A stretch of DNA of 60,762 nt from Marinobacterium profundum (GTDB taxonomy: Bacteria > Pseudomonadota > Gammaproteobacteria > Pseudomonadales > Balneatricaceae), in contig NZ_BCNS01000105.1 of assembly GCF_001528745.1 (NCBI RefSeq), forward strand, positions 1 to 60,762, given 5' to 3'. Of the stretch, positions 5,826 to 49,337 are shown piece by piece. The stretch's first letter is position 1, and each line of letters starts with the position of its first letter. Below the pieces are notes generated by a model that was not told the DNA's origin, searched no databases, and saw nothing but the letters and a program-made list of their open reading frames with translations. A program made the translations under genes and the position numbers.

Positions 5826-7454
5826 ATGGATAGCTCGATACAAAACCGCAGCAAAGGGGTACTCGGGGATTACGACAAGCCACTGTTCTGGTCCACGGCC
5901 GGCATCACTCTATTCATAGTGGGCTTGGGTGTGATCAGCCCTGTAACCCTGCAAGCCTACGCCAGTAATGCCCAGGCTTACCTGAGCCACCAGTTTGGCT
6001 GGGCATATATTGCGGCCCTGACGTCCTATGTCGGTATCGGTTTGTGGATTGGTTTCAGTCGCTATGGCGATCTGAAACTGGGCAGGAAGGAGGACACGCC
6101 GGAGTTCTCCACCTTCACCTGGGTCGCGATGCTGTTTAGCTGTGGGATCGGGGTCGGCTTCCTGCTCTGGGGCGTGGCCGAACCCTTGTACCACTATATG
6201 CAGACGCCCTATATGGCCGAGCCGGCCACGCCGGAAGCGATTCCGGTGGCGCTGCAGATTACCTCGCTGCACTGGGGGCTGCACAGCTGGATGGGGTATT
6301 GCATTGTTGGGCTGTGCATCGCTTTCCCGGCGTTCCGCTACGGCAAGCCGATGAACATCGGTATTGCCCTCTACGGCCTGCTGGGGGAGCGCACCGAAAA
6401 CAGCATCTGGGCGCGCCTGCTGGATCTGGTCGGCGCTGTTGCCACCATCGGCGGTATCGCCACAGTGCTGGGTTTGGGTGTGATTTCCATCGACTATGGC
6501 GTTGGGCATATCTTCGGCATTGAGACCGGCAATACCGGCAAGATCATCATTATCACGCTACTGACCCTGGCCTACAGTCTGTCGGCCCTTTCAGGCCTGA
6601 AACGCGGTGTCGCCTTTCTGAGTACCCTGAATGTGGTCGTCGTGATCGCCTTCGGTATCTTTATACTGGTGACCGGAGATACCAATACCCTGATGCGTTA
6701 TTTTGTTACCGATATCGGTAACTACCTGGGCAATTTACTGCCCATGGCCTTCTGGACTGACCCGCAGCAGCAGAGCGACTGGATCAACTGGTGGACAATT
6801 TTCTACTGGCTGATTGTGATTTCCTGGTCTCCCTTTGTCGGTGGCTTTGTTGCGCGCATATCCCGCGGTCGCACGCTGCGTGAGTTCATCATGTTTGCCG
6901 TCCTGACTCCGACCCTTTGCTCCATGCTGTGGTTCTCGGTCATAGGCGGCTCCGCCATCGCCCTCGAAGCTGCGGGCGACATCAGGATCTTCGACGCTGT
7001 GCAAGCCAACGTCGGCTCGGGCATCTACGTACTGCTGGACAGCTTCCCCATGAGTGATGTCCTCAGCCTGGTGGTGTTCTGCAGCATGATTATCTTCCTG
7101 ATCACCTCGGCCGACTCGGCGTGCTTCTTCGTCGCAATGCAGATGTCTAAAGGCGCCTATGAACCCAGCTTTGGCATGAAAGCTACCTGGGGGCTGTTTA
7201 CCGGCCTGCTGGCGATAGTGCTGCTGCTCAGCGGCGGATTGAAAGCGGTGCAGGCGGCCTCCATCATCGCCGGCAGCCCCTTCGCCATCGGCATCGGCTT
7301 TATGGTCTGGTCGCTGCTGCGCTCACTGAAGCTGGAGTACGCCAAAGACCTCCTGGAGGAGGCAGGGCAAGAGGTTCCTCAGCAGCAAAGACGTGAGGAA
7401 AGTGCGGAAGACTTCTCATCGGTGAGCGGGCTGGCCTATAGAACAGCCGACTAA
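5826..7454 (+). CDS. BCCT-family transporter with altered substrate site
   Basis: A 542-residue, 12-helix secondary transporter of the betaine/choline/carnitine (BCCT) family. The TM4 aromatic motif is intact (W150, W155, Y158). In the TM8 signature, the two adjacent tryptophans that cage quaternary ammonium groups in BetP are replaced by I330 and V331, while W334 remains. The DMSP-cluster BCCT in this window keeps all three. This suggests a substrate other than an ordinary betaine. The start is the ATG at 5826 with AGGAG 7 bases upstream; a TTG two codons earlier is less likely. It is probably co-transcribed with the amidohydrolase. Confidence 0.9.
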
Positions 7455-7541
7455 ACAGGATTCAAAAAAACTGCACCAAGTACCTGACCGGCCGGGGCTT
7501 GCGTTTGAACGCTGCCCCGGCCGTCAGCCGTTAGTCGTGGG

Positions 7542-9155
7542 TCAGGCGTGGTCCTGCAGGATCAACTCGGCGCCTTTCTCCGCCACCATCATGGTCGGCG
7601 CATTGAGGTTGCCGGAGGTGATGTTGGGGAAGATGGAGGCATCGATTACGCGCAGTCCGTCAACGCCGTGCACGCGCAGGCGGGCATCCACCACGGCGGT
7701 TTCGGCGTCCGGACCCATGGTGCAGGAGCCGCACAGGTGGTAGATGGAACCGCCTTTTTCGCGGAAGTACTGCAGCATGCTGGCCTCGTCGTGCACGCTG
7801 TCTGCGGGCAGAACTTCCTCCTCGGTGATGGCTTGTAGCGCCGGCGCCCCCATGATCTTGCGGATCAGCCTGTTGCCCTGAATCACTTCGCGAATATCTT
7901 TCTCGGTGGACAGGCAGTTCGGCTTGATCAGGGCCGCATCCTGCGGATTGTTCGACGCAATTTCGATCTGACCCTTGCTGCTGGGGCGGCATGAATTGAA
8001 TGCCACCAGGAATCCTGAGTAAGGCTCCGGCATCATCTTGGCATTGGGGTCATTCGGGATCTGATACGACATCGGGTTGAAGTACAGCTGAATGTTCGGC
8101 AGGGGCTCGTTGTCGTCACCCCTGAAGAAGCCGCCAGACTGGTTGACGCTCATGCTCAGAGGCCCGGTACGATTGATCAGATACTGGATGCCCGCTTTTG
8201 CCTGCCCCCAGTACGACAGAAATTCGTCGTTAAGGGTTTTCATGTTGGCGCGGTAATAGTAACTGACACAGAGGTGATCCTGCAGGTTCTGACCCACGGC
8301 GGGCAGATGTCTGCGCACGGGAATCTGGTGCCTGTCCAGCAGAGCGCTGTCGCCGATCCCGGACAGCTGCAGTAGCTTGGGCGAGTCCACCGCGCCTGCT
8401 GCCAGGATGACCTCCCGCCGGGCCTGGATAGTTTCCACAGTGTCGCCGCTGCGCACCTCTACGGCGATCGCACGGTTGTTCTCGTCCAGCAGCACCTTCT
8501 GCGCCATGCTGACCCGCTTGATGTGCAGGTTCGAACGCTTGAGCGCAGGCTTCAGGTAGGCGGTATTGCTGGAATCGCGCTGGCCGTCGCGAATATTGGC
8601 TTCGTAGATGCCGGCGCCTTCGAGCGTTTCGCCGTTGAAATCGTCGTTCAGCGTGTAGCCCAGCTGTTGGGCGCCTTTCAGATAATGCTGGCAGATCGGG
8701 TGGGCGCCGTCCTTCATCGGGGTAATACCGATCAGGCCCTTGCTGGAATGGTGCTCCGTATCGCCGGCCGGGTGTTGCTCCAGCATTTTGAAGTAGGGCA
8801 GTACGTCCTTGTAGGACCAGCCGGCATTGCCAGCCGCGGCCCAGTCATCGAAGTCCGCCGCCTGGCCGCGCACGTAGATCATGGCATTGATCGAGCCGGA
8901 GCCGCCCTGCACCTTGCCGCGCGGAGCGTAGAGCTTGCGCCCGGCCATGCCTTCCTCTTCCTCGCTGTAATACATGTAGTTGTATTGCGGGTTGTAGTAG
9001 GTCTTGGCGAAGCCGACTGGAAGCTTGATCCAGGGGGAGCTGTCCTTGCCGCCCGCCTCAAGCAGCAGCACGCTGTGCTGCCCTGATTCGCTGAGGCGGT
9101 GGGCCAGGATACAGCCGGCAGAGCCGGCGCCTACGATAATGAAATCGTATTCCAT
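7542..9155 (-). CDS. GMC-family FAD oxidoreductase (choline dehydrogenase-like)
   Basis: A 537-residue glucose-methanol-choline flavoprotein that would oxidise an alcohol to an aldehyde. The N-terminus has the FAD dinucleotide motif GAGSAG, followed by GGSGSINAM. The C-terminal part has the catalytic His in [10 protein letters not shown] and the Asn in TSGNLNAPT. The start is placed at MEYDF (9155), just after the stop of the upstream enolase-family gene, with a GGAG binding site. An aldehyde dehydrogenase in the same leftward run could take its product. The family is clear; the substrate is not, and it need not be choline. Confidence 0.88.
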
Positions 9156-24738: not shown

Positions 24739-24742
24739 CTAG
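24637..24742. mobile_element. Family B element, copy 2, ending on a stop codon
   Basis: A 106-bp element bounded by CTAG on both sides (24637-24640 and 24739-24742), matching copy 1. Its right-hand CTAG supplies the TAG stop of the leftward YeeE/YedE gene. Confidence 0.65.
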
Positions 24743-25659
24743 GCGGTCTCGCGCTGTTGTGTCTGGTCCAGCATAAACAGGCCCATTCTGATACCTGCCA
24801 GTATGCAGCCGACGGTCAGAAAGCCTGCCGGCGAGAGCGCAGGCAGAGCCAGCAACAATTGGGAATCGTTGCCGCCCATCGCCAGCGCCGCGCCTATGCC
24901 CATCAGAGTACCGGCGATAAAGTGCAGCAATAGCGGGCCTGTGCTGGCTGGCCGCAGCTGCAGTTTATTCAGGCGGCGGGCGGCCACAGACATGCCGAAC
25001 AACAGGGCCAGTACCAGCGCGTATCGAGCTAGCCTGGGAGTCTGACGCCCGTCCGGATCCATCAGTGCCGCAACCTGATCCTGCAGCAGGCCGCTGGGGG
25101 ACCACCCCGGTTCGTACAAAAACAAAATCCCGGACAGCAGGCCGATTCCCATCATGCCGAGCCAGAGGTTTCTGCGCAGCGGGTTACCCAGTAACGCCCA
25201 AAGCGCCAGTGCGCAGGTCATGGCCGCCAGAATTGCGAAGGCACCGGGCCCCGGCCCCGGCAGCATCGTGACCTCCAGGTTCGGCTGCCAATAGGCCAGG
25301 GTACACCAGCCTGCGACCCAGCCCAGGGGAGTGGTCAGCATCTGCAGTTCTCCGCTGGCCAGTCGGCTCAGGGTGGAGATACTGCAACCCTGGTTGAGCG
25401 CCGTACCCAGTCCGAACAAGAGTCCGCCAACGGCAAACCAGGGCCCCGGCTCGAACACGAGAAAAGGGATCGCAGTCCCAAGGTGCTGGGAAGCCACAGC
25501 GACGGCCCATACCAGCACGCCGCAGCAAAGGATCGACAGCATCACCTCGGGGCGGCCCTGGGACCATTCCCTGACACCGCGCACCATGCACAGCCCCGTG
25601 GTTTGCGTCATATATCCCAGAATAGCGACCAGTAACACTGCACCTGTCAGCAACAGCAT
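24739..25659 (-). CDS. YeeE/YedE-family sulfur-compound transporter
   Basis: A 306-residue polytopic membrane protein with two DUF395 (YeeE/YedE) halves. The family includes thiosulfate transporters that use cysteines along the pore. Here TGLCMVRG (about residue 24) and NQGCSISTLSR (about 91) keep their cysteines; the second-half counterpart reads GGNDSQLL, without Cys. An AGAGGA site precedes the ATG. It lies 76 bp downstream of the FMN protein on the same strand and is probably the last gene of the bufferin operon. Its stop codon lies in a family B element end. Confidence 0.82.
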   Translation of the reverse strand: MLLLTGAVLLVAILGYMTQTTGLCMVRGVREWSQGRPEVMLSILCCGVLVWAVAVASQHLGTAIPFLVFEPGPWFAVGGLLFGLGTALNQGCSISTLSRLASGELQMLTTPLGWVAGWCTLAYWQPNLEVTMLPGPGPGAFAILAAMTCALALWALLGNPLRRNLWLGMMGIGLLSGILFLYEPGWSPSGLLQDQVAALMDPDGRQTPRLARYALVLALLFGMSVAARRLNKLQLRPASTGPLLLHFIAGTLMGIGAALAMGGNDSQLLLALPALSPAGFLTVGCILAGIRMGLFMLDQTQQRETA

Positions 25660-25735
25660 GGTTATATCCTCTCAGGTGTGAAGCCCGGAGATAGTGCCGA
25701 CTGATCCGGGCGGGGACTGCACAGGCCAGCCTTTG

Positions 25736-27313
25736 CTACCTGTGGGGGTGTTGGTTTTCAGCGAGTTCATCACCCAGGGCTAGCTCCCTCAGCGGTATCA
25801 TTTCTGCTGCGGCTGGCGGCGCCGGTAGTGGAAACAGTTCGCTCAGGGGGCTGCTGCGCCCCCCTTGCATGACCTGGTGACAGTGATAGCGCTGCAATTC
25901 GCGGGGCTCTTTGACGCCACAGGCATGGGCGATCACGGCGACTTCATGCACCAGGTTGTGAACGTAGTGATGTACACGCTCCGCCTTGTGGTCCGGGTTG
26001 AGGCCTTTCTGCAGGCGGGGGTTGTGCGTTGTTATACCTGTAGGGCAGGTATTTCGATTGCACTGCAGCGCCTGGATGCAGCCCAGGGCCATCATAAAGC
26101 CCCGCGCCGAGACCACGAAATCAGCTCCCAGACACAGGGCCCAGGCGACTTCTGCCGGATTGATCAGCTTGCCCGAAGCGATCACTCTGATGCGTGACTT
26201 CAGGCCGTGGCTCTGCAGACGGTCCACCAGCATGGGCAGGCTTTCGCGGATGCTCAGTCCCATGTAGTCCATCAGGCTGGTGGGCGCAGCGCCTGTGCCG
26301 CCGTCGGCGCTGTCGAGGGTGATGAAGTCCGGAGCCGAGTCCATACCTAGCTGCCGGATCCTCGCAAACAATGCATCGAGCCAGCCGTAGGCCCCCAGTA
26401 CGCACTTGAATCCCACCGGCTTGCCGGTGACACGCCGTATTCTGGCGATCATGTCGAGCAGATCGTCCACGTTGTTGATATCCGGGTGACGGTTGGGGCT
26501 GATGGAGTCTTTGCCGACGGCTATGCCGCGGATGCTGGCAATTTCGGCGCTGACCTTGGCGCCCGGCAGTATGCCGCCCTTGCCAGGCTTTGCACCCTGG
26601 GACAACTTGATTTCGAACATGCGGACCTGGGCATGGGCGGCGACCTCTCGCAGGCGGGCGTCGCACAGGTTGCCCTGCGCATCGCGTACACCGTACTTGG
26701 CCGTACCTATCTGGAACACCAGATCGCAGCCGCTCTCCAGGTGCCAGGGGGAGAGCCCGCCCTCACCGGTGTTGAGCCAGCAGCCTGCCAGTTTTGCTCC
26801 GCGGGACAGGGCCTGCACTGCGGGTTTGGACAGTGCGCCGTAACTCATGCCGGAGATGTTGAACAGGGAACTGGCGGTGAATGGCTGGGGGCAGTCGGCG
26901 CCGACAATGAGGCTGCTCACGGGGGTTGCATCAATGCCCAGGGTAGGAAAGGGGCAGTTGACGAATATCAGTGCCCCCGGCTGGTGAATATCCCGGGTGG
27001 AGCCAAACGCCTGAGTAGTGTCGAGATTCTTGGCAGCCCGGTACACCCAGCTGCGCTGGGCGCGGTTGAACGGCATTTCTTCCCGGTCCATGGCGAAAAA
27101 GTATTGCCGGAAAAAGCCGCCCAGGTGCTCGAAGGCGTAGCGAAAGTGCGCAACTACCGGATAGTTGCGTCGTAGAGCCTGCTTGGTCTGGCTGATGTCG
27201 AGCAGGTACACCAGGCAAAGCGCCAGCAAGGTCAGGCCGACCAGGAACACGAACGCGTAGGCGAGGGTGGACAGTACGCTATGCACAAGGTCGAAGGTTT
27301 CGCGGGACATCAT
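25736..27313 (-). CDS. Membrane-anchored FMN/Fe-S glutamate-synthase-like oxidoreductase
   Basis: A 525-residue protein with an N-terminal membrane helix (about 12-36) and a glutamate-synthase FMN-binding domain, including GGTGAAP. Cysteines C412, C418 and C423 match the spacing that binds the 3Fe-4S cluster in GltB. There is no glutamine-amidotransferase domain, so it is not a full glutamate synthase; the electron donor and acceptor are unknown. The start overlaps the DUF2063 stop (ATGA) with AGGAG upstream, so it is translationally coupled to the bufferin maturation genes. Upstream in-frame codons to 27511 lie inside that gene. Confidence 0.88.
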   Translation of the reverse strand: MMSRETFDLVHSVLSTLAYAFVFLVGLTLLALCLVYLLDISQTKQALRRNYPVVAHFRYAFEHLGGFFRQYFFAMDREEMPFNRAQRSWVYRAAKNLDTTQAFGSTRDIHQPGALIFVNCPFPTLGIDATPVSSLIVGADCPQPFTASSLFNISGMSYGALSKPAVQALSRGAKLAGCWLNTGEGGLSPWHLESGCDLVFQIGTAKYGVRDAQGNLCDARLREVAAHAQVRMFEIKLSQGAKPGKGGILPGAKVSAEIASIRGIAVGKDSISPNRHPDINNVDDLLDMIARIRRVTGKPVGFKCVLGAYGWLDALFARIRQLGMDSAPDFITLDSADGGTGAAPTSLMDYMGLSIRESLPMLVDRLQSHGLKSRIRVIASGKLINPAEVAWALCLGADFVVSARGFMMALGCIQALQCNRNTCPTGITTHNPRLQKGLNPDHKAERVHHYVHNLVHEVAVIAHACGVKEPRELQRYHCHQVMQGGRSSPLSELFPLPAPPAAAEMIPLRELALGDELAENQHPHR

Positions 27314-28116
27314 GATTGAGCTCCTGCCGGTGAAGGCCGGTCTGACTTGGAATTCAGCGGCACCAAAACGCCGGCCGCAAGATAGTGGGACACAAGGGGT
27401 TGCAGATCGAATCTTGGGTCGCTGGCCAGTACCTGCTCGACCGCATGCCCGAGGGGCGCCCCCCGCGACAGTTGCTGCAATAACAAGCTGGCGCCGGGCT
27501 GCAATGACCAAAGCTGAACTCTCAGCTGAGGGCGTATCACCAGTACCGATTCAGCGCCGCTGTTCAGGTGGACGGTCTGCGGGTCCTCGACCTCCGCCTG
27601 GTTGCATTGCCAGATGTGATAAATGGGAAAGATTGAGTCCACAAGTCGACAGGCCGGCCCCAGGCGAAAGCGCAACTGTGCCAGTGCCCCGGGAGACATC
27701 AGTGCCAGTGTCTGAATATCGATTGTCTTGTTATCGGGAGCATGGACAACCTCGTGGCAGGCCCACTCCAGGCGTGCAACATCGGTCAGATACGGCAGGC
27801 CTGCCGCTGGCTTGAAGCCGGCAATAAACGCAGGCATTCGGTCGCCGAACTGCAACAGATCGCCGCATCTTGAGGGATGAGCCCTCAGGTAGTGGTCTGC
27901 CAGAAACTGGAAAAACTCCGTACCCACCAGCCGTTTCAGTACCGGATAATCCGCCTCCAGGGCTTCCTCCAGAGAAATGCTGAAATTATTGCGGTAGATC
28001 TGCAGCAGCCGGGCGGCGGGCAGGCGGCCATCCATAATCAGGCCCTGCAAGTGCCGCAGCTCAGCGCCCCAGAGGTCCTCGGCAAAGGCGCGTTGCAGCC
28101 GATTCAGGGCGCTCAT
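27310..28116 (-). CDS. bufC: DUF2063 MNIO-partner protein (BufC-like)
   Basis: A 268-residue protein of the DUF2063 family, which partners DUF692 (MNIO) enzymes and helps present the precursor peptide, as MbnC does for methanobactin. The N-terminal helical region (about 1-95, including FAEDLWG and YRNNFSISLEEAL) is the conserved domain. Its ATG overlaps the DUF692 stop and its stop overlaps the next gene's start (both ATGA), so three proteins are made in tight coupling. The symbol follows bufferin nomenclature. Confidence 0.88.
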   Translation of the reverse strand: MSALNRLQRAFAEDLWGAELRHLQGLIMDGRLPAARLLQIYRNNFSISLEEALEADYPVLKRLVGTEFFQFLADHYLRAHPSRCGDLLQFGDRMPAFIAGFKPAAGLPYLTDVARLEWACHEVVHAPDNKTIDIQTLALMSPGALAQLRFRLGPACRLVDSIFPIYHIWQCNQAEVEDPQTVHLNSGAESVLVIRPQLRVQLWSLQPGASLLLQQLSRGAPLGHAVEQVLASDPRFDLQPLVSHYLAAGVLVPLNSKSDRPSPAGAQS

Positions 28117-29006
28117 GAGCGGATACCTCTATCGGGGGGCGAGAGGTTATCCAGGCAGTCCTGGGCAATCCGGGCCTGATCGACCAGCTCCGGCAGGGGC
28201 GGCAGCTCTGCATCCCATTCGATCAGGGTCGGTTTGGGCCCAAGCCACTGCAGGGACTGCCGGTAAAGTGCCCAGACGTCCTCACAGACCGGTGAGGCAT
28301 GGTCGTCGATCCGCAGCGCGCCGTCCTCGAACTGTTTCAGGCTATGGCCTGCCAGATGAATCTCCGCCACCTGAGTGGCCGGAATTGCCCTGAGGTAGGT
28401 TTGGGCATCGAATCCGTGATTGAAGGCGCTGACAAAGACATTGTTGATATCCAGCAGCAGCAAGGCACCGGTGCGCTGGCAGATAGCGTTCAGAAACTCC
28501 CACTCCGCTATGGTCGAGTGACGATAACGCAGGTAGCTGGAAGGGTTCTCAATCAGCAGAGTACGGCCCAGGGCCTCCTGTACCTGATGGACCCGCAGGC
28601 AGAAATGATCCAGCGCTTCCTCGGTGTAGGGCAGGGGCAGCAGGTCGTTGAAATGGATGTCGGATACCGACCCCCAGCTCAGGTGTTCCGACACCAGGCC
28701 CGGCTGCACCTGGTCTACCAAGTCTCGCAGCCGTGCCAAATGAGACCTGCACAGCGGATCGGTTGAACCCAGGGATAGCCCCACGCCGTGCAGGCTGACC
28801 GGGTAGTGCTCACGGGCTCGCAGCAGGTAATAAAGCGGAACCCCGGAGCCGCCGAAATAATTCTCTGAGTGGGCTTCGAGCCAGCCGACAGCGGGAAGGC
28901 TTTGCAGCAGCGCCTCCATATGGGGACCTCGCAGGCCTATGCCGGCTTCGGTCGGAATCGCCCGACTGGAGACAGCTGTACTCTGGTTGGGCATCAGACC
29001 GTTCAT
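28113..29006 (-). CDS. bufB: DUF692 multinuclear non-haem iron oxidase (MNIO, BufB-like)
   Basis: A 297-residue DUF692 TIM-barrel enzyme. This family uses two or three irons to modify cysteines of ribosomal peptides; in bufferins it is reported to form thiooxazoles. Visible family motifs are HSENYFG, SLHGVGLSLG, SEHLSW, LIENPSSY, LLLDINNVF and EIHLAGH, carrying the His/Glu/Asp/Asn metal ligands. AGGAGG precedes the ATG. Together with the downstream DUF2063 gene and the upstream DUF2282 precursor this is the core of a bufferin (gig-type) operon. Confidence 0.92.
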   Translation of the reverse strand: MNGLMPNQSTAVSSRAIPTEAGIGLRGPHMEALLQSLPAVGWLEAHSENYFGGSGVPLYYLLRAREHYPVSLHGVGLSLGSTDPLCRSHLARLRDLVDQVQPGLVSEHLSWGSVSDIHFNDLLPLPYTEEALDHFCLRVHQVQEALGRTLLIENPSSYLRYRHSTIAEWEFLNAICQRTGALLLLDINNVFVSAFNHGFDAQTYLRAIPATQVAEIHLAGHSLKQFEDGALRIDDHASPVCEDVWALYRQSLQWLGPKPTLIEWDAELPPLPELVDQARIAQDCLDNLSPPDRGIRS

Positions 29007-29045
29007 CTGGCGCCTCCTTATGCAGTATTGAGGATTAAGGCTGAT

Positions 29046-29564
29046 TTAGCGGTCCTGCGGCTTGGCTGACCTGGAGCGCAGATAACGGTGTATCAGCGCA
29101 TCCAGCGAAACTAGCCCTGGTCCGTAGAACAGCGGCACCAGCAGCATCAATCCCCAATACTGGTGATGCTGAATGCCCACCTCATTCAGGCTGGGGTAGG
29201 ACAGGACGGCGATGATGTTGAACAGGAACAGCGTCAGGGCACTGAAGCGGGTTGCCAGCCCCACTGCAAGCAGTACCGGCATCAGCAATTCCACGCCTGT
29301 GCCCAGCCAGGCTGCGAGCTGTGGCGACAGAACCGGAACGCTGTATTCGTAGGTGAATAGGTAGAGAGTGGCGTCCCAGCTGGCAATCTTGGCCATGCCC
29401 GCTTTCCAGAAAATGGCGGCGATCCAGAGTCGGAATAACAGGCTTACGGCAGGGCTAAGCAGGTTCAGTCCTTGAGTGCACTGCTGGGCCCAATACAGGG
29501 TGCGGGTAAAAAGGGGTGAACCGGTGCTGACCGGATTTTCGCGATGGGCGTTGAATTGGGTCAT
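29046..29564 (-). CDS. DoxX-family membrane protein of bufferin operon
   Basis: A 172-residue DoxX protein with four predicted membrane helices. DoxX proteins accompany many bufferin operons, where a role in redox or export is presumed but unproven. The start MTQFNAHR (29564) is chosen for its GGAG site; codons further upstream lack one. It lies 39 bp before the MNIO gene and 256 bp after the precursor gene, the gap being filled by a structured repeat. Confidence 0.85.
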   Translation of the reverse strand: MTQFNAHRENPVSTGSPLFTRTLYWAQQCTQGLNLLSPAVSLLFRLWIAAIFWKAGMAKIASWDATLYLFTYEYSVPVLSPQLAAWLGTGVELLMPVLLAVGLATRFSALTLFLFNIIAVLSYPSLNEVGIQHHQYWGLMLLVPLFYGPGLVSLDALIHRYLRSRSAKPQDR

Positions 29565-29652
29565 GGTCGCGTTCTCCTGCAGGCAGTGGCCGGAACAGGC
29601 CCGGACCACTGCCGGTGGATTGGATCAGAGCCTGACCCTGTGCTGGGCCAGG

Positions 29653-29814
29653 CTATTTAGCTGGCGGATAAATTAGGTTCCCTACCTATTTATCCATCAC
29701 CCCACAAAAACAGGCGCAAGTACGTGGACGTGCTGGTTTTTGTGGGCTTCATCATTGGCCTGCGGCCAATGATGAAGCAGGGATGCTTCATGTATTAACC
29801 CGGCGGGTTAATAG
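29653..29814. repeat. Family C structured repeat, copy 1 (between bufA and doxX)
   Basis: This 162-bp element starts 7 bp past the precursor stop. It holds GGATAAATTAGG/CCTATTTATCC, a 10-bp stem CCCACAAAAA/TTTTTGTGGG (29701-29746), a 15-bp perfect stem GCTTCATCATTGGCC/GGCCAATGATGAAGC (29746-29778), GAAGCA/TGCTTC, and a CCCGGCGGG end dyad. Read on the minus strand, these are hairpins between the precursor and enzyme genes, well placed to attenuate or process the mRNA. Confidence 0.75.
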
Positions 29815-29820
29815 TCAATT

Positions 29821-30081
29821 TCACTTGGCTTCAAGGGTGGCGCCGGCGATCTTGCTGCAGGTGCCCTGGGGTACGGCGATAAAGGCATCGGATTGGCGAT
29901 CGTTCTTGGCGGTGCCGGCGCAGGAGCTGGTTGCGGTCTGGCAGTCGTTCTTGCCGGCGGCGGCAACGCCGTAGCATTTTTCGAACTGGGGTTCGTCTGC
30001 CAGTGCTGTGCCTGCGCTGATAATGCCGGCAGTGGACAGTGCAAAAATGGCGGCGCTAATCAGTTGAGTAGAAGCTTTCAT
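29821..30081 (-). CDS. bufA: Bufferin-type RiPP precursor (DUF2282, BufA-like)
   Basis: An 86-residue small protein with a Sec signal peptide (about 1-28, cleavage after ALA) and a mature part holding four cysteines, C36, C47, C54 and C75, in the DUF2282 pattern EKCYGVAAAGKNDC. Such precursors are modified by the MNIO/DUF2063 pair and bind copper in the periplasm. The GAGGAAA site fixes the start at 30081; codons further upstream are not needed. It is the first gene of the leftward operon. Confidence 0.92.
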   Translation of the reverse strand: MKASTQLISAAIFALSTAGIISAGTALADEPQFEKCYGVAAAGKNDCQTATSSCAGTAKNDRQSDAFIAVPQGTCSKIAGATLEAK

Positions 30082-30572
30082 TGTCTGTTTCCTCAGGGGT
30101 CTGTAGGGGATATGGCTGACCTGTTCAGGTGTCGTTGCCATGGGAGCCAGTCTGAAGAAATCGACCTAGTCATAACATTCGCAATGTCACCTGTCGTACC
30201 TGTGGAAAACCGCAGGTCGGGTCTCGGGTGCTACGGTATTGGTGTGGTTTTAAGTGCAGGTTTAGGCCGCTAACTTGATGAAAAATAATAAATAAAATGT
30301 ATTTAAGGAGCCTGGGATTCTAGCGAGTGTGATTTGAGTTGGTGCTGTGGTTTTGCACCGGGTTGGCGTCTTGGCGTGAAAGTTCGTGTACTGGCACCGA
30401 CAGCAGCCTGGGTTGGCCCGGTTCTGCTCCATGGCACAGGTAGTATCCGCAAAGCAGCAGGTAGGAGAACGGATTATGCGGGACGAGTTTGGCGGGTATC
30501 TTGGATAACAGGTCATACATTCGACATTGGGTTCAGTATCCGTTTGAACCCGGTCACAGGCGGAGGCCAATC
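30082..30572. promoter_or_regulatory. bufA upstream region with ACCTG dyads
   Basis: This 491-bp gap has no convincing gene. Upstream of bufA are two inverted repeats built on ACCTG: ACCTG-TT-CAGGT at 30119-30130 and ACCTGTGG-AAAA-CCGCAGGT at 30198-30217 (one mismatch between arms), plus a direct ACCTGT at about 30189-30194. The 20-bp dyad recalls MerR/CueR-type operators, but the promoter itself was not identified. The right part, before the next gene, shows nothing further. Confidence 0.4.
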
Positions 30573-30926
30573 ATGCAAGCCTTGAATCAAGTACCCACCC
30601 ATAGCCGTCTCAGCCACACAGTACTGAGCCGGGAAAACGCCCACTTCAGCGGTACCGGTGGTATTAGTCAAAACAACCGCGCCCAGGGATTTCGCCCGGC
30701 CTTTCTGGATACGCTGACGGGTCGTATTTATATTTCCTGTTTTGCCGATGGGCGGCCAGCCCCCATCCATCTGCTGGATGGTCTGCCGGCCGCGCTGGTG
30801 ATCAGTGAGGCGGGGCAGAGCCGTCGGATCCGGGCGGCCGTCATTTCCGGTTTCGTTCTGAATGAGCGCTTCTATACCCGTGCCCAGGCCGCCGAATATC
30901 TCCGGCAGGTGGCATTGCCGTCATAA
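30573..30926 (+). CDS. Conserved hypothetical protein, 117 aa
   Basis: A small soluble protein with no signal peptide or membrane helix. The middle part (NNRAQGFRPAFLDTLTGRIY...FADGRPAPIHLLDGLP) looks conserved in type, but I cannot name a family with a known function. GGAGG lies 6 bases before the ATG. It is divergent from the bufferin operon and lies about 150 bp before the sensor kinase. Confidence 0.7.
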   Translation: MQALNQVPTHSRLSHTVLSRENAHFSGTGGISQNNRAQGFRPAFLDTLTGRIYISCFADGRPAPIHLLDGLPAALVISEAGQSRRIRAAVISGFVLNERFYTRAQAAEYLRQVALPS

Positions 30927-31075: not shown

Positions 31076-32983
31076 ATGATATCGGCTGCGCCTAACCTTA
31101 ACGCTGCTTTGCGCTTTAATGACACCTCAGAGCTGGTCTACGTCAGCCCGCAAATGCTGCGGTTGCTCGGCTACGATGACTCGGTTTTCTTCGTATCCCC
31201 CCTGACAGATCTGATTCCGGAACTGACCGACGAACGGATTGCTGCGCTTTGGCAGCAGACGATGGCCGAGGGCAGTGCCAGGCTGCAGTGTCACCTGGTG
31301 GATTGCAGTGGTGGGCATTCCCCGGTCGATATCCGCTTTGGCCGCATTCAGGCTGGCGGGCAGATGCAGCTGTGTGCCTGCGTTCAGCCCATGGTGGCCA
31401 GCAGCGAAGCCGAGCGGTTGCTGCAGCTGGTAGCACGCACCACCGCGCAAAGTACCGGGAGCGAGTTCTTTCGTGTCCTGGCCCGGTCACTGGCTGAAGT
31501 ACTCAATGTGGACGGTGCCCTGATCACCGAATGCCTGGATTTTCCCACCACTCGGGTGCATACCCTGGCGTACTGGACGCATCGTGATTTTACCGGAGAT
31601 ATTGATTATGACCTGGCGGATACTCCCTGCGAGAAGGTGGTTCAGGAAGGGCGCGTCTGTCTTTATGCCAGTCGACTGACTGAGCGCTATCCCAAGGATG
31701 TCGGGGCCGAGAGCTATCTGGGGGTGCCGATTTTCGACGCCGATAATCAGCGGGTGATCGGCCATATGGCCTTTTTCGATTCACAAGCGATGCCGGATGG
31801 CTTCTATCACAAGGCGGTGTTCGATATCTTCTGCGCCCGGGCCAGTGCTGAACTGCAACGAATGCAGGCTACGCGCAACCTTCGCCTTCAGGAGCAGAAA
31901 TACCGCCTGCTGGTCGAGAATCAGCAAGAGCTGGTGGCCCAGTTGGATTCAGACGGTCGGTTTGAGTTTGCCAGCCCCTCGCTGTGTGAGTTTTTCGGTC
32001 GCACTGAGGCTTCGCTGATGGGAATGCCCTTGCTTGATCTGGTTCAGGCCTCGGATCAGGTACATGGCAGGGCCTGCTGGAGCCAGCTTGGAGTTCCTGG
32101 GCAGCATGGGGAATTCGAGCACAGGGTTGAAACGAAGCGAGGCGAGCGCTGGCTCTCCTGGTCGCTGAAGGCCGCCATTGAGCAAGGTGCCCTGCACAGT
32201 GTAATAGCCGTTGGTCGTGATATTACGGAGCGCCGGGAGGCGGAAGAGAATGCCCGCCAGACTCTGCAGGATCTGGCCCACCTGTCCAGGGTCAGCTCCA
32301 TGGGCGAGATGGCCTCTGCCTTTGCCCACGAGGTCAATCAGCCCCTTTGCGCGATCCTGACGTATTCTCAGGCCTGTCTTAGGTTGCTTGGCAGTGAAAC
32401 CACCGATGTCGCAGAAATTCGCCACGCAATGGAGCGCGTGGCTGCCAATGCAGAATTGGCCGGGGATATCATTCAGCAGATGCGCAACTTTCTGCGCAAG
32501 GGTGAACCGGATTTAATGATGGCGGATATTTTCCAGGTGCTGCAGGACGCCATTACCCTGGCTCGGGTGGAACTGCGGGACGACGCTATCGAAATCCAGC
32601 TGGAGTGTGAGCAATCTTTGCCGCCGGTTCGCATCAACGTTACCCAGATTGAACAGGTCATTTTAAATTACCTGTGCAACGCCCGGGACGCCATGAAAGC
32701 CGTGGGGCGCACCGGCAAGGTGAGTATCAGAGCTCACCACAGCGCACCGCGGGAACTGCAGATCAGCGTTCTGGATCAGGGTCCCGGTATCGACTCGCAA
32801 CTGCTCGACAGGGTGTTCGAGCCCTTCGTCACCAGCAAATCGATGGGCATCGGCATCGGTCTGTCTATCTGCAAGTCAATCGTAGAGGCCCATGGTGGAC
32901 GGGTCGGCGGCTTTAATCATCCACAGGGGGGCGCCTGCTTTCAGTTGACGCTGCCGTTGGTGGGCGAGGGAGGAGGATCATGA
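31076..32983 (+). CDS. Soluble PAS-GAF-PAS sensor histidine kinase
   Basis: A 635-residue histidine kinase without membrane helices, so it senses a cytosolic signal. In order: PAS-like (about 10-105), GAF (about 120-265), PAS (about 275-395), HisKA with phospho-acceptor H418 in FAHEVNQPL, and HATPase_c with NYLCNARDAM and DQGPGID. The FAHEVNQPL box belongs to the FixL/TodS-like HPK4 class. The FixJ-type regulator follows with ATGA overlap, forming a two-component pair. The signal and targets are unknown. Confidence 0.9.
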   Translation: MISAAPNLNAALRFNDTSELVYVSPQMLRLLGYDDSVFFVSPLTDLIPELTDERIAALWQQTMAEGSARLQCHLVDCSGGHSPVDIRFGRIQAGGQMQLCACVQPMVASSEAERLLQLVARTTAQSTGSEFFRVLARSLAEVLNVDGALITECLDFPTTRVHTLAYWTHRDFTGDIDYDLADTPCEKVVQEGRVCLYASRLTERYPKDVGAESYLGVPIFDADNQRVIGHMAFFDSQAMPDGFYHKAVFDIFCARASAELQRMQATRNLRLQEQKYRLLVENQQELVAQLDSDGRFEFASPSLCEFFGRTEASLMGMPLLDLVQASDQVHGRACWSQLGVPGQHGEFEHRVETKRGERWLSWSLKAAIEQGALHSVIAVGRDITERREAEENARQTLQDLAHLSRVSSMGEMASAFAHEVNQPLCAILTYSQACLRLLGSETTDVAEIRHAMERVAANAELAGDIIQQMRNFLRKGEPDLMMADIFQVLQDAITLARVELRDDAIEIQLECEQSLPPVRINVTQIEQVILNYLCNARDAMKAVGRTGKVSIRAHHSAPRELQISVLDQGPGIDSQLLDRVFEPFVTSKSMGIGIGLSICKSIVEAHGGRVGGFNHPQGGACFQLTLPLVGEGGGS

Positions 32984-33609
32984 GTTCGGATCAGGCACGT
33001 GTATTCATAATCGATGATGAAAGCGATGTTCGCGCAGCGCTGTCGATGCTGATTCGCTCGATCGGTCTGGAGGTCGAGACCTTCAGTAATGCTCTGGAGT
33101 TTCTGGTCAGTTACCGGCCGCAATGGTCGGGCTGCATAGTGGCGGACATTCGCATGCCGGGCATGAGCGGCCTGGAACTGCAGGAGAAACTGAACGCCAT
33201 GGGGGCCGATATGCCGCTTATTTTCATTTCCGGTCATGCCGATGTGCCCACCGCGGTGCGGGCGATTCAGGAAGGTGCCCTGGATCTGCTGGAAAAACCC
33301 TTCAGCGACCAGCGTCTGCTGGACAAGGTGCAGAGCGCGGTCAGGCGGGATCTGGAAAGGCGTGCGGAGATTGAGGTCAGAGGACAGCTGCGACAGCGTT
33401 ATGCGGCGCTGACACCGCGGGAAAGGGAAGTCATGACAGCAGTGGTCGCCGGAAAAATGAACAAGGTGACCGCGCACGAACTGAATCTCAGTACCCGTAC
33501 TGTGGAACTGCATCGAGCCAATGTGATGGAGAAGATGCAGGCAGGGTCCCTGGCAGAGCTGGTGCGACTTGCACAGATGCTGGAGCTGGATGAGAGCGGG
33601 CCGGCCTGA
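32980..33609 (+). CDS. FixJ/NarL-type response regulator
   Basis: A 209-residue response regulator with an N-terminal receiver (phospho-acceptor D56 in VADIRMPG, conserved Lys in LEKPF) and a C-terminal LuxR-type helix-turn-helix (LTPREREVM...STRTVELHRANVMEKM). It overlaps the kinase stop by ATGA, so kinase and regulator are co-translated. Targets are not evident. Confidence 0.9.
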   Translation: MSSDQARVFIIDDESDVRAALSMLIRSIGLEVETFSNALEFLVSYRPQWSGCIVADIRMPGMSGLELQEKLNAMGADMPLIFISGHADVPTAVRAIQEGALDLLEKPFSDQRLLDKVQSAVRRDLERRAEIEVRGQLRQRYAALTPREREVMTAVVAGKMNKVTAHELNLSTRTVELHRANVMEKMQAGSLAELVRLAQMLELDESGPA

Positions 33610-34637: not shown

Positions 34638-35228
34638 CTATTCATCTGATTTATCCCACAGATTAATGATTTCGCCGTTGGCGTAGCCGGAGATAAAGGG
34701 CTGCTGAGCGCTGCTGTTGGGGTCGTAGAGGTTGCGCCGCTGGGCACCGATATTGGTGCCGTAAACATGGATGCTGACAGAGGCTGTGTCATTCAGCCCG
34801 TTGGACACGCGGTGGATATCGCCGATGCGCGGTGATACCAGGTCAATGCTGCCGGGGTGCAATTCGTGAGTGCCCAGTGCCAGCAGTTTGCCGCTTTGGG
34901 GATCGGGGGCGAACTCCTCGCAGCGTTCCAAACCGCGCAGCACGCCGACCATACCCCAGACCTGGTGGTCGTGAATGGGTGTGCACTGGCCCGGGCCCCA
35001 GACAAAACTGACCACCGAAAAACGCTCCAGCGGATCGCAGTGCAGCAGGTACTGGCGATACTCGGTGAGGCCTGGCTCGCTATAGGCCTCCGGCAGCCAG
35101 TCGTCGTGTCGGATCAGATCCGCGAGCAGCAATTCACCGGCATCCAGCAGGTAGGCTTCATCATCCGATTCGTTTACCAGAGCGGTGAAGGCCTGGACAA
35201 AATCACGCAGGCGGGCGGTGTTATGCAT
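34638..35228 (-). CDS. Thiol dioxygenase, 3-mercaptopropionate dioxygenase-like
   Basis: A 196-residue cupin of the cysteine-dioxygenase family. The iron-binding His residues are in PIHDHQVWG and in the SVSIHVYG strand. Stretches WLPEAY, QYLLH, FSVVSFVWGPGQ, SPRIGDIH and HVYGTNIGAQRR resemble the Pseudomonas 3-mercaptopropionate dioxygenase more than eukaryotic cysteine dioxygenase; the Arg in GAQRR is the residue associated with carboxylate binding in that enzyme. It would oxidise the thiol to a sulfinic acid. Cysteine remains a possible substrate. Confidence 0.8.
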   Translation of the reverse strand: MHNTARLRDFVQAFTALVNESDDEAYLLDAGELLLADLIRHDDWLPEAYSEPGLTEYRQYLLHCDPLERFSVVSFVWGPGQCTPIHDHQVWGMVGVLRGLERCEEFAPDPQSGKLLALGTHELHPGSIDLVSPRIGDIHRVSNGLNDTASVSIHVYGTNIGAQRRNLYDPNSSAQQPFISGYANGEIINLWDKSDE

Positions 35229-49148: not shown

Positions 49149-49337
49149 CTATTAACCTGGTGGACAAATAGGTTCCCTCCCTATTTGTCCGTCACGCCAG
49201 AACTCTTTAGCCTAAAAGATTGGGCGCAAGTGCATGGACTTGCTGGCCTTCTTGGGGACGAAGAGATGGCGTTCGCATTGGCCTGCGGCCAATGATGAAG
49301 CATCCCAGCTTCATGTATTAACCCGCCGGGCTAATAG
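49149..49337. repeat. Family C structured repeat, copy 3
   Basis: About 189 bp. Its stems are GGACAAATAGG/CCTATTTGTCC (perfect 11 bp), CAAGT/ACTTG, GCATTGGCC/GGCCAATG and GAAGC/GCTTC, with the end dyad CCCGCCGGG. Its ends begin CTATTAACC and finish GGCTAATAG, a terminal inverted repeat of about 15 bp with mismatches. Confidence 0.75.

What the first reader, a model, noticed from the sequence alone, without database searches (positions are those of the whole stretch)
24739..30081. Bufferin RiPP operon extended by an FMN/Fe-S oxidoreductase and a YeeE/YedE transporter
The sequence shows a leftward series: DUF2282 precursor with four Cys, DoxX, DUF692 MNIO, DUF2063, then a membrane-anchored glutamate-synthase FMN-domain protein whose ATG overlaps the DUF2063 stop, then a YeeE/YedE protein 76 bp on. 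The first four are the known bufferin (gig-type) set. The last two are not standard members as far as I know. Coupled translation suggests that the FMN/3Fe-4S protein acts with the maturation enzymes, for example in supplying electrons or handling the modified thiols, and that a sulfur-compound transporter contributes. The role is inferred.
Basis: partly seen in the sequence, partly recalled or inferred. Interest (0 to 1): 0.78.

Follow-up and report, generated by a model that had tools for sequence, protein, structure and literature searches.

The report
Copper-peptide operon with sulfur-transport add-on
A marine bacterium makes a small copper-binding peptide from a known type of gene cluster that here carries two extra genes, a likely sulfur transporter and a flavin enzyme, and related genomes suggest the two belong together as a supply unit rather than to the peptide-modifying machinery.

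Summary
A standard bufferin set (DUF2282 precursor, DoxX, BufB-type MNIO, DUF2063) is followed by a membrane-anchored GltS-type FMN/3Fe-4S protein and a YeeE-fold protein. The extension is real but narrow: among 96 relatives FMN sits by BufB in 3 genomes and YeeE in 4, all one Marinobacterium-type genus, own genome included. The genes diverged together. One species deleted FMN, leaving 17 codons, yet kept bufferin genes and YeeE. Two distant FMN clades stand directly upstream of this YeeE subfamily. The YeeE subfamily adjoins bufferin sets in three separate lineages and Ssp phosphorothioation genes in others, though 31 of 48 show neither these nor FMN. It lacks the third transport cysteine of TsuA in 48 of 48. 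Against me: stand-alone FMN relatives often neighbour a HexR-like regulator or PtsP, hinting at carbon/nitrogen metabolism. I read YeeE, helped by FMN, as a portable reduced-sulfur supply unit, not a maturation factor. Function is inferred. New variant of a known cluster; no report found in the library searched.

The parts
29821..30081 (-). Bufferin precursor (BufA, DUF2282), 86 aa, four Cys, N-terminal signal sequence by eye
   Evidence: translation; Pfam DUF2282 80.1 bits over cut-off 22.4
29582..29613 (-). Stem-loop just before the DoxX ribosome-binding site; arms change together between species (GGCAGTGG/CCACTGCC against GGTAGTGG/CCACTACC)
   Evidence: alignment of four genomes, pairing read by eye; not tested statistically
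29046..29564 (-). DoxX/HvfX-like membrane protein, 172 aa
   Evidence: Pfam DoxX 55.7 bits over cut-off; DoxD 21.3, under its cut-off of 22.7
28113..29006 (-). MNIO enzyme BufB (DUF692), 297 aa
   Evidence: NCBIfam MNIO_BufB 375.7 against cut-off 310
27310..28116 (-). DUF2063 partner protein (BufC-type), 268 aa
   Evidence: Pfam DUF2063 80.8 bits; HvfC 39.7, under its cut-off of 142
25736..27313 (-). Membrane-anchored stand-alone GltS-type FMN/3Fe-4S protein, 525 aa; ATG overlaps the DUF2063 stop
   Evidence: Pfam Glu_synthase 288.5 bits; AlphaFold model pLDDT 83.3 with N-terminal helix 4-41; the seven best PDB fold matches are glutamate synthases
24739..25659 (-). YeeE/YedE-fold membrane protein, 306 aa, two of the three TsuA transport Cys (C24, C92); third is Gly
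   Evidence: Pfam Sulf_transp 67.1 bits; model pLDDT 93.2, TM 0.78 to 6LEO; residue alignment
31076..32983 (+). Divergent sensor histidine kinase (GAF, PAS, HisKA, HATPase), beside the operon in all four genomes; in M. nitratireducens it reads as two ORFs in the record
32980..33609 (+). Response regulator (receiver plus LuxR-type HTH), overlapping the kinase gene

Best explanation
This is a bufferin copper-buffering operon of a Marinobacterium-type bacterium onto which an accessory sulfur-supply unit has been added. MNIO plus DUF2063 modify the Cys-rich exported precursor, as in known bufferins (inferred from family). YeeE lets a reduced inorganic sulfur species (thiosulfate, sulfide or sulfane sulfur) into the cytoplasm. 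The membrane-tethered FMN/3Fe-4S protein is the cytosolic redox helper of YeeE: it reduces or passes on the imported sulfur, or supplies a glutamate-linked reducing step of assimilation. This keeps cysteine available when copper damages the Fe-S-dependent sulfite reductase and when much cysteine goes into bufferin. Shown: the gene order, co-inheritance, YeeE beside bufferin sets in separate lineages, FMN of two distant clades beside YeeE, and loss of FMN but not YeeE in one species. Inferred: sulfur as substrate, direction of transport, the FMN reaction, and the link to copper.
For: (1) YeeE of this subfamily lies beside complete bufferin sets in four Marinobacterium-type genomes, in Colwellia sp. 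C2M11 (L052) and, divergently, in G349 (L037). The tree of 48 YeeE proteins needs at least 3 changes of the bufferin label, which could be gains or losses. (2) FMN genes from two clades separated by long branches each stand directly upstream of, and co-directional with, this YeeE. (3) M. nitratireducens lost FMN and kept YeeE with the bufferin genes. (4) The same YeeE subfamily lies within about 8 kb of SspB-SspC-SspD and SspA phosphorothioation genes in 5 loci, with SspA alone in 1 more. SspA is a cysteine desulfurase, a sulfur donor (PMC7188994, search listing). 0 of 52 control loci, some of them short, showed Ssp, MNIO or BufA genes. (5) The YeeE model matches the thiosulfate transporter 6LEO, TM 0.78. 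(6) Window-G004 dS is 0.79-1.39 in all eight genes and FMN has the lowest dN, 0.075. (7) Metal damage to Fe-S sulfite reductase strains cysteine supply, and cystine rescued Ni+Cu-treated E. coli (PMC12724342, passages).
Against: YeeE lacks the equivalent of Cys293, reported indispensable in S. thermophila TsuA (PMC11582611, passages), in 48 of 48 full-length relatives, so classical thiosulfate transport is doubtful. No TusA/YeeD gene is adjacent; the genome's two TusA genes are on other contigs. Of 48 full-length YeeE, 31 have neither FMN, bufferin nor Ssp genes in the stretch held. FMN relatives that stand apart have neighbours of their own that do not speak of sulfur: a HexR-like RpiR-family regulator about 0.5 kb downstream, convergent, in 16 of the 30 loci, including most but not all loci of the window's own family, and PtsP within about 6 kb in 4 of 16 wider loci, three of them in one genus. 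In window-G002, kinase and regulator have lower dN than FMN. In PMC12724342 sulfate-assimilation genes were induced by Ni+Cu together and not by Cu alone. No expression data were available.
Confidence: 0.38

Rival explanations
1. One reading: the FMN/3Fe-4S protein is a maturation factor that feeds electrons to the MNIO (or reduces precursor disulfides), with YeeE handling sulfur by-products.
For: Stop/start overlap with DUF2063 in G000 and G002. FMN has the lowest dN of the eight genes between window and G004. MNIOs turn over better with ascorbate, and it is unclear whether they need an external reductant (PMC13097082, passages). In G442 an FMN gene lies between two bufferin clusters, though on the other strand.
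Against: FMN deleted in M. nitratireducens with the cluster otherwise intact. FMN by BufB in 3 of 96 relatives and near 2 genomes' BufB among the 150 rows printed for the class. FMN stands by YeeE in five loci without bufferin genes in the stretch held. An MNIO/DUF2063 pair is described as enough to build the thiooxazoles (PMC12538549, passages).
Confidence: 0.15
2. FMN is a glutamate-forming enzyme, perhaps a copper-tolerant stand-in for glutamate synthase (GOGAT), that keeps glutamate made when copper poisons the housekeeping Fe-S enzyme; YeeE is a separate aid.
For: The GltS FMN domain, the QGAKPGxGG and GGTGAAP motifs and the 3Fe-4S Cys are intact in the window protein. Solved relatives are all glutamate synthases. 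FMN relatives neighbour a HexR-like regulator (16 of 30 loci) or PtsP (4 of 16 wider loci); that PtsP senses nitrogen state is recalled. That copper inhibits bacterial GOGAT is recalled; my searches listed no paper that I recognised as showing it, and none of those listed was read for it.
Against: There is no amidotransferase domain, and the protein is itself an Fe-S protein. The bufferin-linked and YeeE-linked copies sit by YeeE, not by nitrogen genes. The genome has another FMN paralogue at 68% identity elsewhere.
Confidence: 0.2
3. Hitchhiking: YeeE and FMN were caught downstream of a bufferin operon by chance and are simply read through; no shared function.
For: The linkage is narrow, 3-4 of 96 relatives, all one genus. 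Both genes mostly stand apart elsewhere.
Against: YeeE-bufferin and FMN-YeeE neighbourhoods recur in other lineages. The order is retained at dS about 1 while the genes beyond YeeE differ.
Confidence: 0.18
4. YeeE is a sensor or gate for periplasmic sulfur or copper-thiol state that signals to the divergent two-component system, as SoxT1B signals to SoxR.
For: SoxT1B, a YeeE-like protein, acts in signal transduction (PMC11582611, abstract and passages). A kinase/regulator pair lies next to the operon in the four genomes.
Against: No match to this kinase in the Colwellia locus L052; not reported for L037, where the printout left it out. No mechanism for a YeeE with only two of the three Cys.
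Confidence: 0.06

Closest known systems
Buf1-type bufferin gene cluster (gig operon of Cupriavidus/Legionella)
   Same: DUF2282 four-Cys precursor with signal sequence, DoxX, BufB-type MNIO, DUF2063
   Different: FMN/GltS and YeeE added at the 3' end, and a two-component system beside it; sigma factor and NrsF genes are the regulators reported in Buf1 clusters (PMC12452194, section 14)
YeeE/TsuA thiosulfate transporter (6LEO) with YeeD/TsuB
   Same: Fold (TM 0.78), Sulf_transp family, equivalents of Cys22 and Cys91
   Different: Equivalent of Cys293 is Gly in a GGN motif; no TusA/YeeD partner adjacent; 30.5 bits against the NCBIfam TsuA cut-off of 645
Glutamate synthase large subunit, FMN domain
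   Same: FMN-domain fold, 3Fe-4S Cys motif, shared motifs
   Different: Stand-alone, membrane-anchored, no amidotransferase domain; real substrate unknown
SspABCD DNA phosphorothioation loci carrying the same YeeE subfamily
   Same: A sulfur-using modification system with this YeeE nearby
   Different: No bufferin or FMN genes in those stretches

Membership tests
Bufferin (Buf1) biosynthetic gene cluster | DUF2282 precursor with signal sequence and four Cys | tested here: met
   signal judged by eye
Bufferin (Buf1) biosynthetic gene cluster | BufB-type MNIO | tested here: met
   NF050167 375.7 bits against cut-off 310
Bufferin (Buf1) biosynthetic gene cluster | DUF2063 partner and DoxX protein | tested here: met
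   Pfam over cut-off for both; NCBIfam HvfC and HvfX models only below cut-off
Bufferin (Buf1) biosynthetic gene cluster | Thiooxazoles on central Cys, copper binding, copper induction | not testable with these tools
   needs mass spectrometry and expression work
TsuA/YeeE thiosulfate transporter | YeeE fold | tested here: met
   TM 0.78 to 6LEO
TsuA/YeeE thiosulfate transporter | Three transport Cys (22, 91, 293) | tested here: not met
   two kept, third replaced by Gly; GGN in 48 of 48 full-length relatives
TsuA/YeeE thiosulfate transporter | Adjacent or fused YeeD/TusA partner | tested here: not met
   TusA genes only on contigs C95 and C156
TsuA/YeeE thiosulfate transporter | Thiosulfate uptake | not testable with these tools
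   needs uptake assay
Glutamate synthase | FMN domain with 3Fe-4S Cys motif | tested here: met
Glutamate synthase | Amidotransferase domain and full-length large subunit | tested here: not met
   525 aa; over cut-off only Glu_synthase; 129.9 bits against the large-subunit cut-off of 1047
Glutamate synthase | Glutamate-forming activity | not testable with these tools
   needs enzyme assay

The most novel reading that the evidence does not exclude
This YeeE subfamily, with a GltS-type FMN protein as redox partner in some lineages, is a portable sulfur-loading unit that has been attached in separate lineages to different sulfur-consuming modification systems: bufferin copper peptides and Ssp DNA phosphorothioation. 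It would transport a sulfur species by a route that does not need the third cysteine, and the FMN protein would be a new kind of partner replacing TusA/YeeD.
Probability: 0.26. Interest if true: 0.68.

Novelty: new variant of a known kind. Interest (0 to 1): 0.48.

Why it matters
If right, it ties copper defence by bufferins to sulfur acquisition, and it gives a first functional handle on stand-alone GltS-FMN proteins. These are widespread: 195 of 369 sampled class genomes have a match to this one at E <= 1e-70. The 11 papers that name an 'FMN-binding glutamate synthase' did not look, from titles and abstract starts, like studies of its function (listing only). It would also show that a YeeE-type channel can serve peptide and DNA sulfur chemistry alike. 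The question can be tested with two gene deletions in a culturable marine bacterium.

Tried and rejected
Considered and rejected: (a) that FMN is a general bufferin gene: by BufB in 3 of 96 relatives and in 2 genomes among the rows printed for 369 class genomes. (b) That FMN was a recent arrival in this operon: its dS between window and G004 (0.98) is like that of its neighbours (0.79-1.39), and M. nitratireducens carries its remnant. (c) Cys residues special to the bufferin-linked FMN (217, 304, mostly 478) exist, but I have no use for them. (d) One FMN gene within 2 kb of BufB in G442 is about what chance allows over 150 printed BufB rows (my estimate, no call), so I give it no weight. (e) Copper inhibition of bacterial GOGAT in print: nothing usable.

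One search shows they do: a HexR-like regulator in 16 of 30 loci, and PtsP in 4 of 16 wider loci (identified). This favours the glutamate/nitrogen rival; I moved that rival from 0.15 to 0.20, my own reading from 0.42 to 0.38 and the novel case from 0.28 to 0.26.

Limits: co-location counts for and 61/62 were made by eye from printed coordinates. The class-level lists were cut by the tool ('more matches are not listed'; 150 BufB rows printed), so rows beyond the cut were not compared. The YeeE alignment that seeded the genome-contig scan (A1; 5 sequences) held four that I already knew to lie beside bufferin genes (window, G002, G004, G349), so its bufferin-linked returns are enriched for those lineages; L052 and L074 are the unseeded ones. 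In L074 the YeeE frame is interrupted in the record, so it is not among the 48 full-length proteins. Stretches held differ in length (L054 has 1.5 kb before FMN, L076 0.15 kb after YeeE, some controls under 5 kb), so 'no such gene' means none in the stretch held. The chance of adjacency is my estimate.
Full report
WHAT IS THERE. Pfam names every protein over its curated cut-off. The MNIO passes NCBIfam's bufferin maturase model (375.7 against 310). The precursor, DUF2063 and DoxX reach NCBIfam's bufferin or Hvf models only below cut-off. Over cut-off the FMN protein shows one Pfam family, the glutamate-synthase FMN region, after an N-terminal helix (residues 4-41 in the model). Positive residues after that helix suggest the enzyme faces the cytosol (by eye). 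All five PDB sequence matches are glutamate synthases, and so are the first seven Foldseek matches. The YeeE model (pLDDT 93.2) matches the thiosulfate transporter 6LEO at TM 0.78.

HOW FAR THE LOCUS EXTENDS. The window belongs to a 5.6-Mb genome in 226 contigs. A genus-mate (G005) has a contig of the same length as the named record of Marinobacterium nitratireducens, so I call the genus Marinobacterium-type. The complete order BufA-DoxX-MNIO-DUF2063-FMN-YeeE recurs in G002 and G004. Next to BufA, on the other strand, a GAF/PAS histidine kinase and a LuxR-type response regulator are found in all four genomes (window, G002, G004, G005); in G005 the kinase reads as two ORFs in the record. Beyond YeeE the neighbours of G004 differ from those of the window. 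Synonymous divergence between window and G004 is 0.79-1.39 in all eight genes, so I take them to have been inherited together. FMN has the lowest dN of the eight in that comparison (0.075; MNIO 0.19, YeeE 0.20); between window and G002, regulator (0.008) and kinase (0.013) are lower than FMN (0.020).

THE DELETION THAT DECIDES ONE POINT. In M. nitratireducens (L046) the DUF2063 stop still overlaps an ATG that begins MMSQETFDLVHTVLSTL, the start of FMN, and the sequence then runs straight into the leader of YeeE. FMN was there and has been lost, while precursor, DoxX, MNIO, DUF2063 and YeeE remain. The overlap itself is present in G000, G002 and this scar. In G004, DUF2063 ends 44 bases before FMN.

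HOW COMMON THE EXTENSION IS. Among 96 relatives, all 96 have some match to the FMN protein (many are ordinary glutamate synthases) and 76 have a BufB-type MNIO at E <= 1e-20. FMN and BufB lie together only in G000, G002 and G004 (compared by eye). YeeE of this type occurs in 7 of 96, and beside BufB in 4: G000, G002, G004 and G005. In a sample of 369 class genomes YeeE (E <= 1e-12) occurs in 4 including the window. One of them, G349, has it divergent from a complete BufA-MNIO-DUF2063-DoxX set. In the same 369 genomes, among the rows printed (150 BufB rows; both lists were cut), FMN is within 2 kb of BufB only in the window and in G442, where it is on the opposite strand between two bufferin clusters. 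In 246 genomes of the family of Colwellia sp. C2M11, 16 have this YeeE; FMN adjoins it in 3 and bufferin genes in 1.

FMN WITH YEEE. A scan of genome contigs with the YeeE alignment returned 69 loci. FMN stands directly upstream of YeeE, same strand, in six Alteromonadales loci: L052, L054, L056, L071, L073 and L076. Outer neighbours mostly differ, but by eye the two Psychromonas loci (L054, L076) share one neighbour and L071 and L076 share another. Only L052 also has bufferin genes: BufA, MNIO, DUF2063 and DoxX upstream, separated from FMN by a Na+/H+ exchanger gene, and a second BufA after YeeE. These FMN proteins are 40-41% identical to the window's and fall in another clade. The tree of 48 FMN proteins separates the two clades by branches of 1.35 and 1.9 and keeps each YeeE-linked group as one clade. 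Two distant FMN clades have thus come to the same place beside the same YeeE subfamily. I estimate, without a call, that immediate same-strand adjacency by chance would be of order one in several thousand per locus. The YeeE tree (48 proteins) needs at least three changes for the bufferin label and three for the FMN label; I read the latter as two gains and the loss in M. nitratireducens.

THE OTHER SIDE: FMN WITHOUT YEEE. In 16 of the 30 loci returned, a regulator lies about 0.5 kb downstream, convergent. It is of the RpiR family (HTH_6 and SIS) and closest to HexR (279.5 bits, just under the cut-off of 296). The window genome's own second FMN copy has it too (L042). Three genomes of the window's genus (L150, L151, L152), and L168 of the other clade, have PtsP, a PTS enzyme I homologue with a GAF domain, 0.2-6 kb away. 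These neighbours suggest carbon or nitrogen metabolism for the ancestral FMN protein. They do not touch the copies beside YeeE, but they make the glutamate reading stronger than I first thought.

A THIRD SETTING FOR THE SAME YEEE. Five YeeE loci (L047, L051, L196, L202, L206) carry SspB-SspC-SspD and SspA within about 8 kb, and L163 carries SspA alone. PADLOC names the four L047 proteins SspB, SspC, SspD and SspA, and also the SspA of L163 and L202 and the SspD of L206. The rest rests on similarity to the L047 proteins. Among 52 control loci (16 FMN-only, 36 distant YeeE), none showed Ssp, MNIO or BufA genes in the same search. Of the 48 full-length YeeE, 9 have FMN, 6 bufferin genes (4 of them both), 5 the Ssp set, 1 SspA, and 31 none of these. 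SspA is the cysteine desulfurase that mobilises sulfur for DNA phosphorothioation (PMC7188994, listing). My search for phosphorothioation, YeeE and SspA found 85 papers with two of the three; in the ten listed, YeeE occurs zero times.

WHAT YEEE CAN AND CANNOT BE. The equivalents of TsuA Cys22 and Cys91 are invariant (C24, C92) in 41 aligned sequences, but the position of Cys293 is Gly in a GGN motif, present in 48 of 48 full-length relatives. Cys91 and Cys293 are reported as indispensable in the S. thermophila transporter (PMC11582611, passages), and YeeE works with the TusA-like YeeD, which has its own Cys (PMC11073785, passages). No such gene is adjacent here; the genome has two TusA genes elsewhere. 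By these features this is a YeeE-fold protein and not shown to be a thiosulfate transporter.

INTERPRETATION. Three facts argue against FMN as a maturation enzyme: the deletion, the rarity near BufB, and the separate pairing with YeeE. They fit a supply unit better. In E. coli, Fe-S damage under nickel plus copper strains sulfite reductase and cysteine supply, and cystine rescues growth (PMC12724342, passages). The same paper saw sulfate-assimilation genes induced only by the two metals together, which weakens the argument for copper alone. A route for reduced sulfur that bypasses sulfite reductase would serve both cysteine supply and a cysteine-rich exported peptide. This is inference. I put it at 0.38, a glutamate-forming role at 0.20, hitchhiking at 0.18, the maturation view at 0.15 and a sensor role at 0.06.

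LITERATURE. A first search was swamped by the word buffering. A whole-word search found 21 papers with two or more of bufferin(s), DUF692, MNIO, YeeE and glutamate synthase; 17 were listed. None of those with bufferin, DUF692 or MNIO holds YeeE, and one, PMC10608839, holds DUF692 and glutamate synthase, in unrelated passages. Of 17 papers (16 listed), PMC13137333 holds DUF2282 and glutamate synthase as separate rows of an expression table. The landscape paper does not mention glutamate synthase, FMN, YeeE, thiosulfate or histidine kinases and calls further conserved genes extremely rare (PMC12452194, passages and section 14). PMC12538549, PMC13097082 and PMC12636315 hold none of glutamate synthase, FMN and YeeE, and PMC5413113 none of glutamate, FMN and YeeE. 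This is the ground for 'not found in print'; supplements, subscription journals and most preprints were not searched.

Noticed in passing
window 29655-29815 (also 49151-49337): A palindromic repeat of about 160 bases sits in the BufA-DoxX gap of this genome; the gap is 98-108 bases in G002 and G004 without it. 44 matches in the genome, 17 near full length at 81-100% identity counting itself, so it looks like a MITE-type element.
   Followed up: partly
window 29582-29613: Stem-loop before DoxX found in four genomes with paired changes; may set less expression of the enzymes than of the precursor.
   Followed up: no
L010, L015, L017, L019-L030, L032, L042: The widespread stand-alone FMN gene lies convergent with a HexR-like RpiR-family regulator in 16 of 30 loci and beside the window genome's own second copy.
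   Followed up: partly
L150, L151, L152, L168: PtsP genes 0.2-6 kb from FMN genes of both clades.
   Followed up: partly
L043 (G000:C2:36000-50000), 6326-7962: The genome's second MNIO-DUF2063 pair gave no match to the window precursor beside it and lies near what reads like a photolyase and an ECF sigma factor/ChrR-type pair; names are from my reading of the translations.
   Followed up: partly
L047, L051, L196, L202, L206, L163: This YeeE subfamily stands near Ssp phosphorothioation genes.
   Followed up: partly
L039, L058, L038: By my reading of translations, YeeE genes of L039 and L058 lie near methionine sulfoxide reductase genes, and that of L038 directly after a thioredoxin-like (TlpA/DsbE-type) gene.
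   Followed up: no
window 34638-35228 (-): A cysteine-dioxygenase-type protein (CDO_I 24.4 bits, just over its cut-off of 23) about 1 kb beyond the response regulator; also in G002, not seen in the G004 stretch.
   Followed up: no
L209 (G442:C11:76000-95000): Two bufferin clusters of different precursor types flank an FMN gene and an acetolactate-synthase-type gene on the opposite strand.
   Followed up: partly
L074: Pseudomonas mandelii 6A1 has a bufferin set followed by a YeeE gene whose frame is interrupted in the record.
   Followed up: no
window 30489-30926 (+): A small ORF between BufA and the kinase is recognisable in G002 and G005 as well; no family assigned.
   Followed up: no
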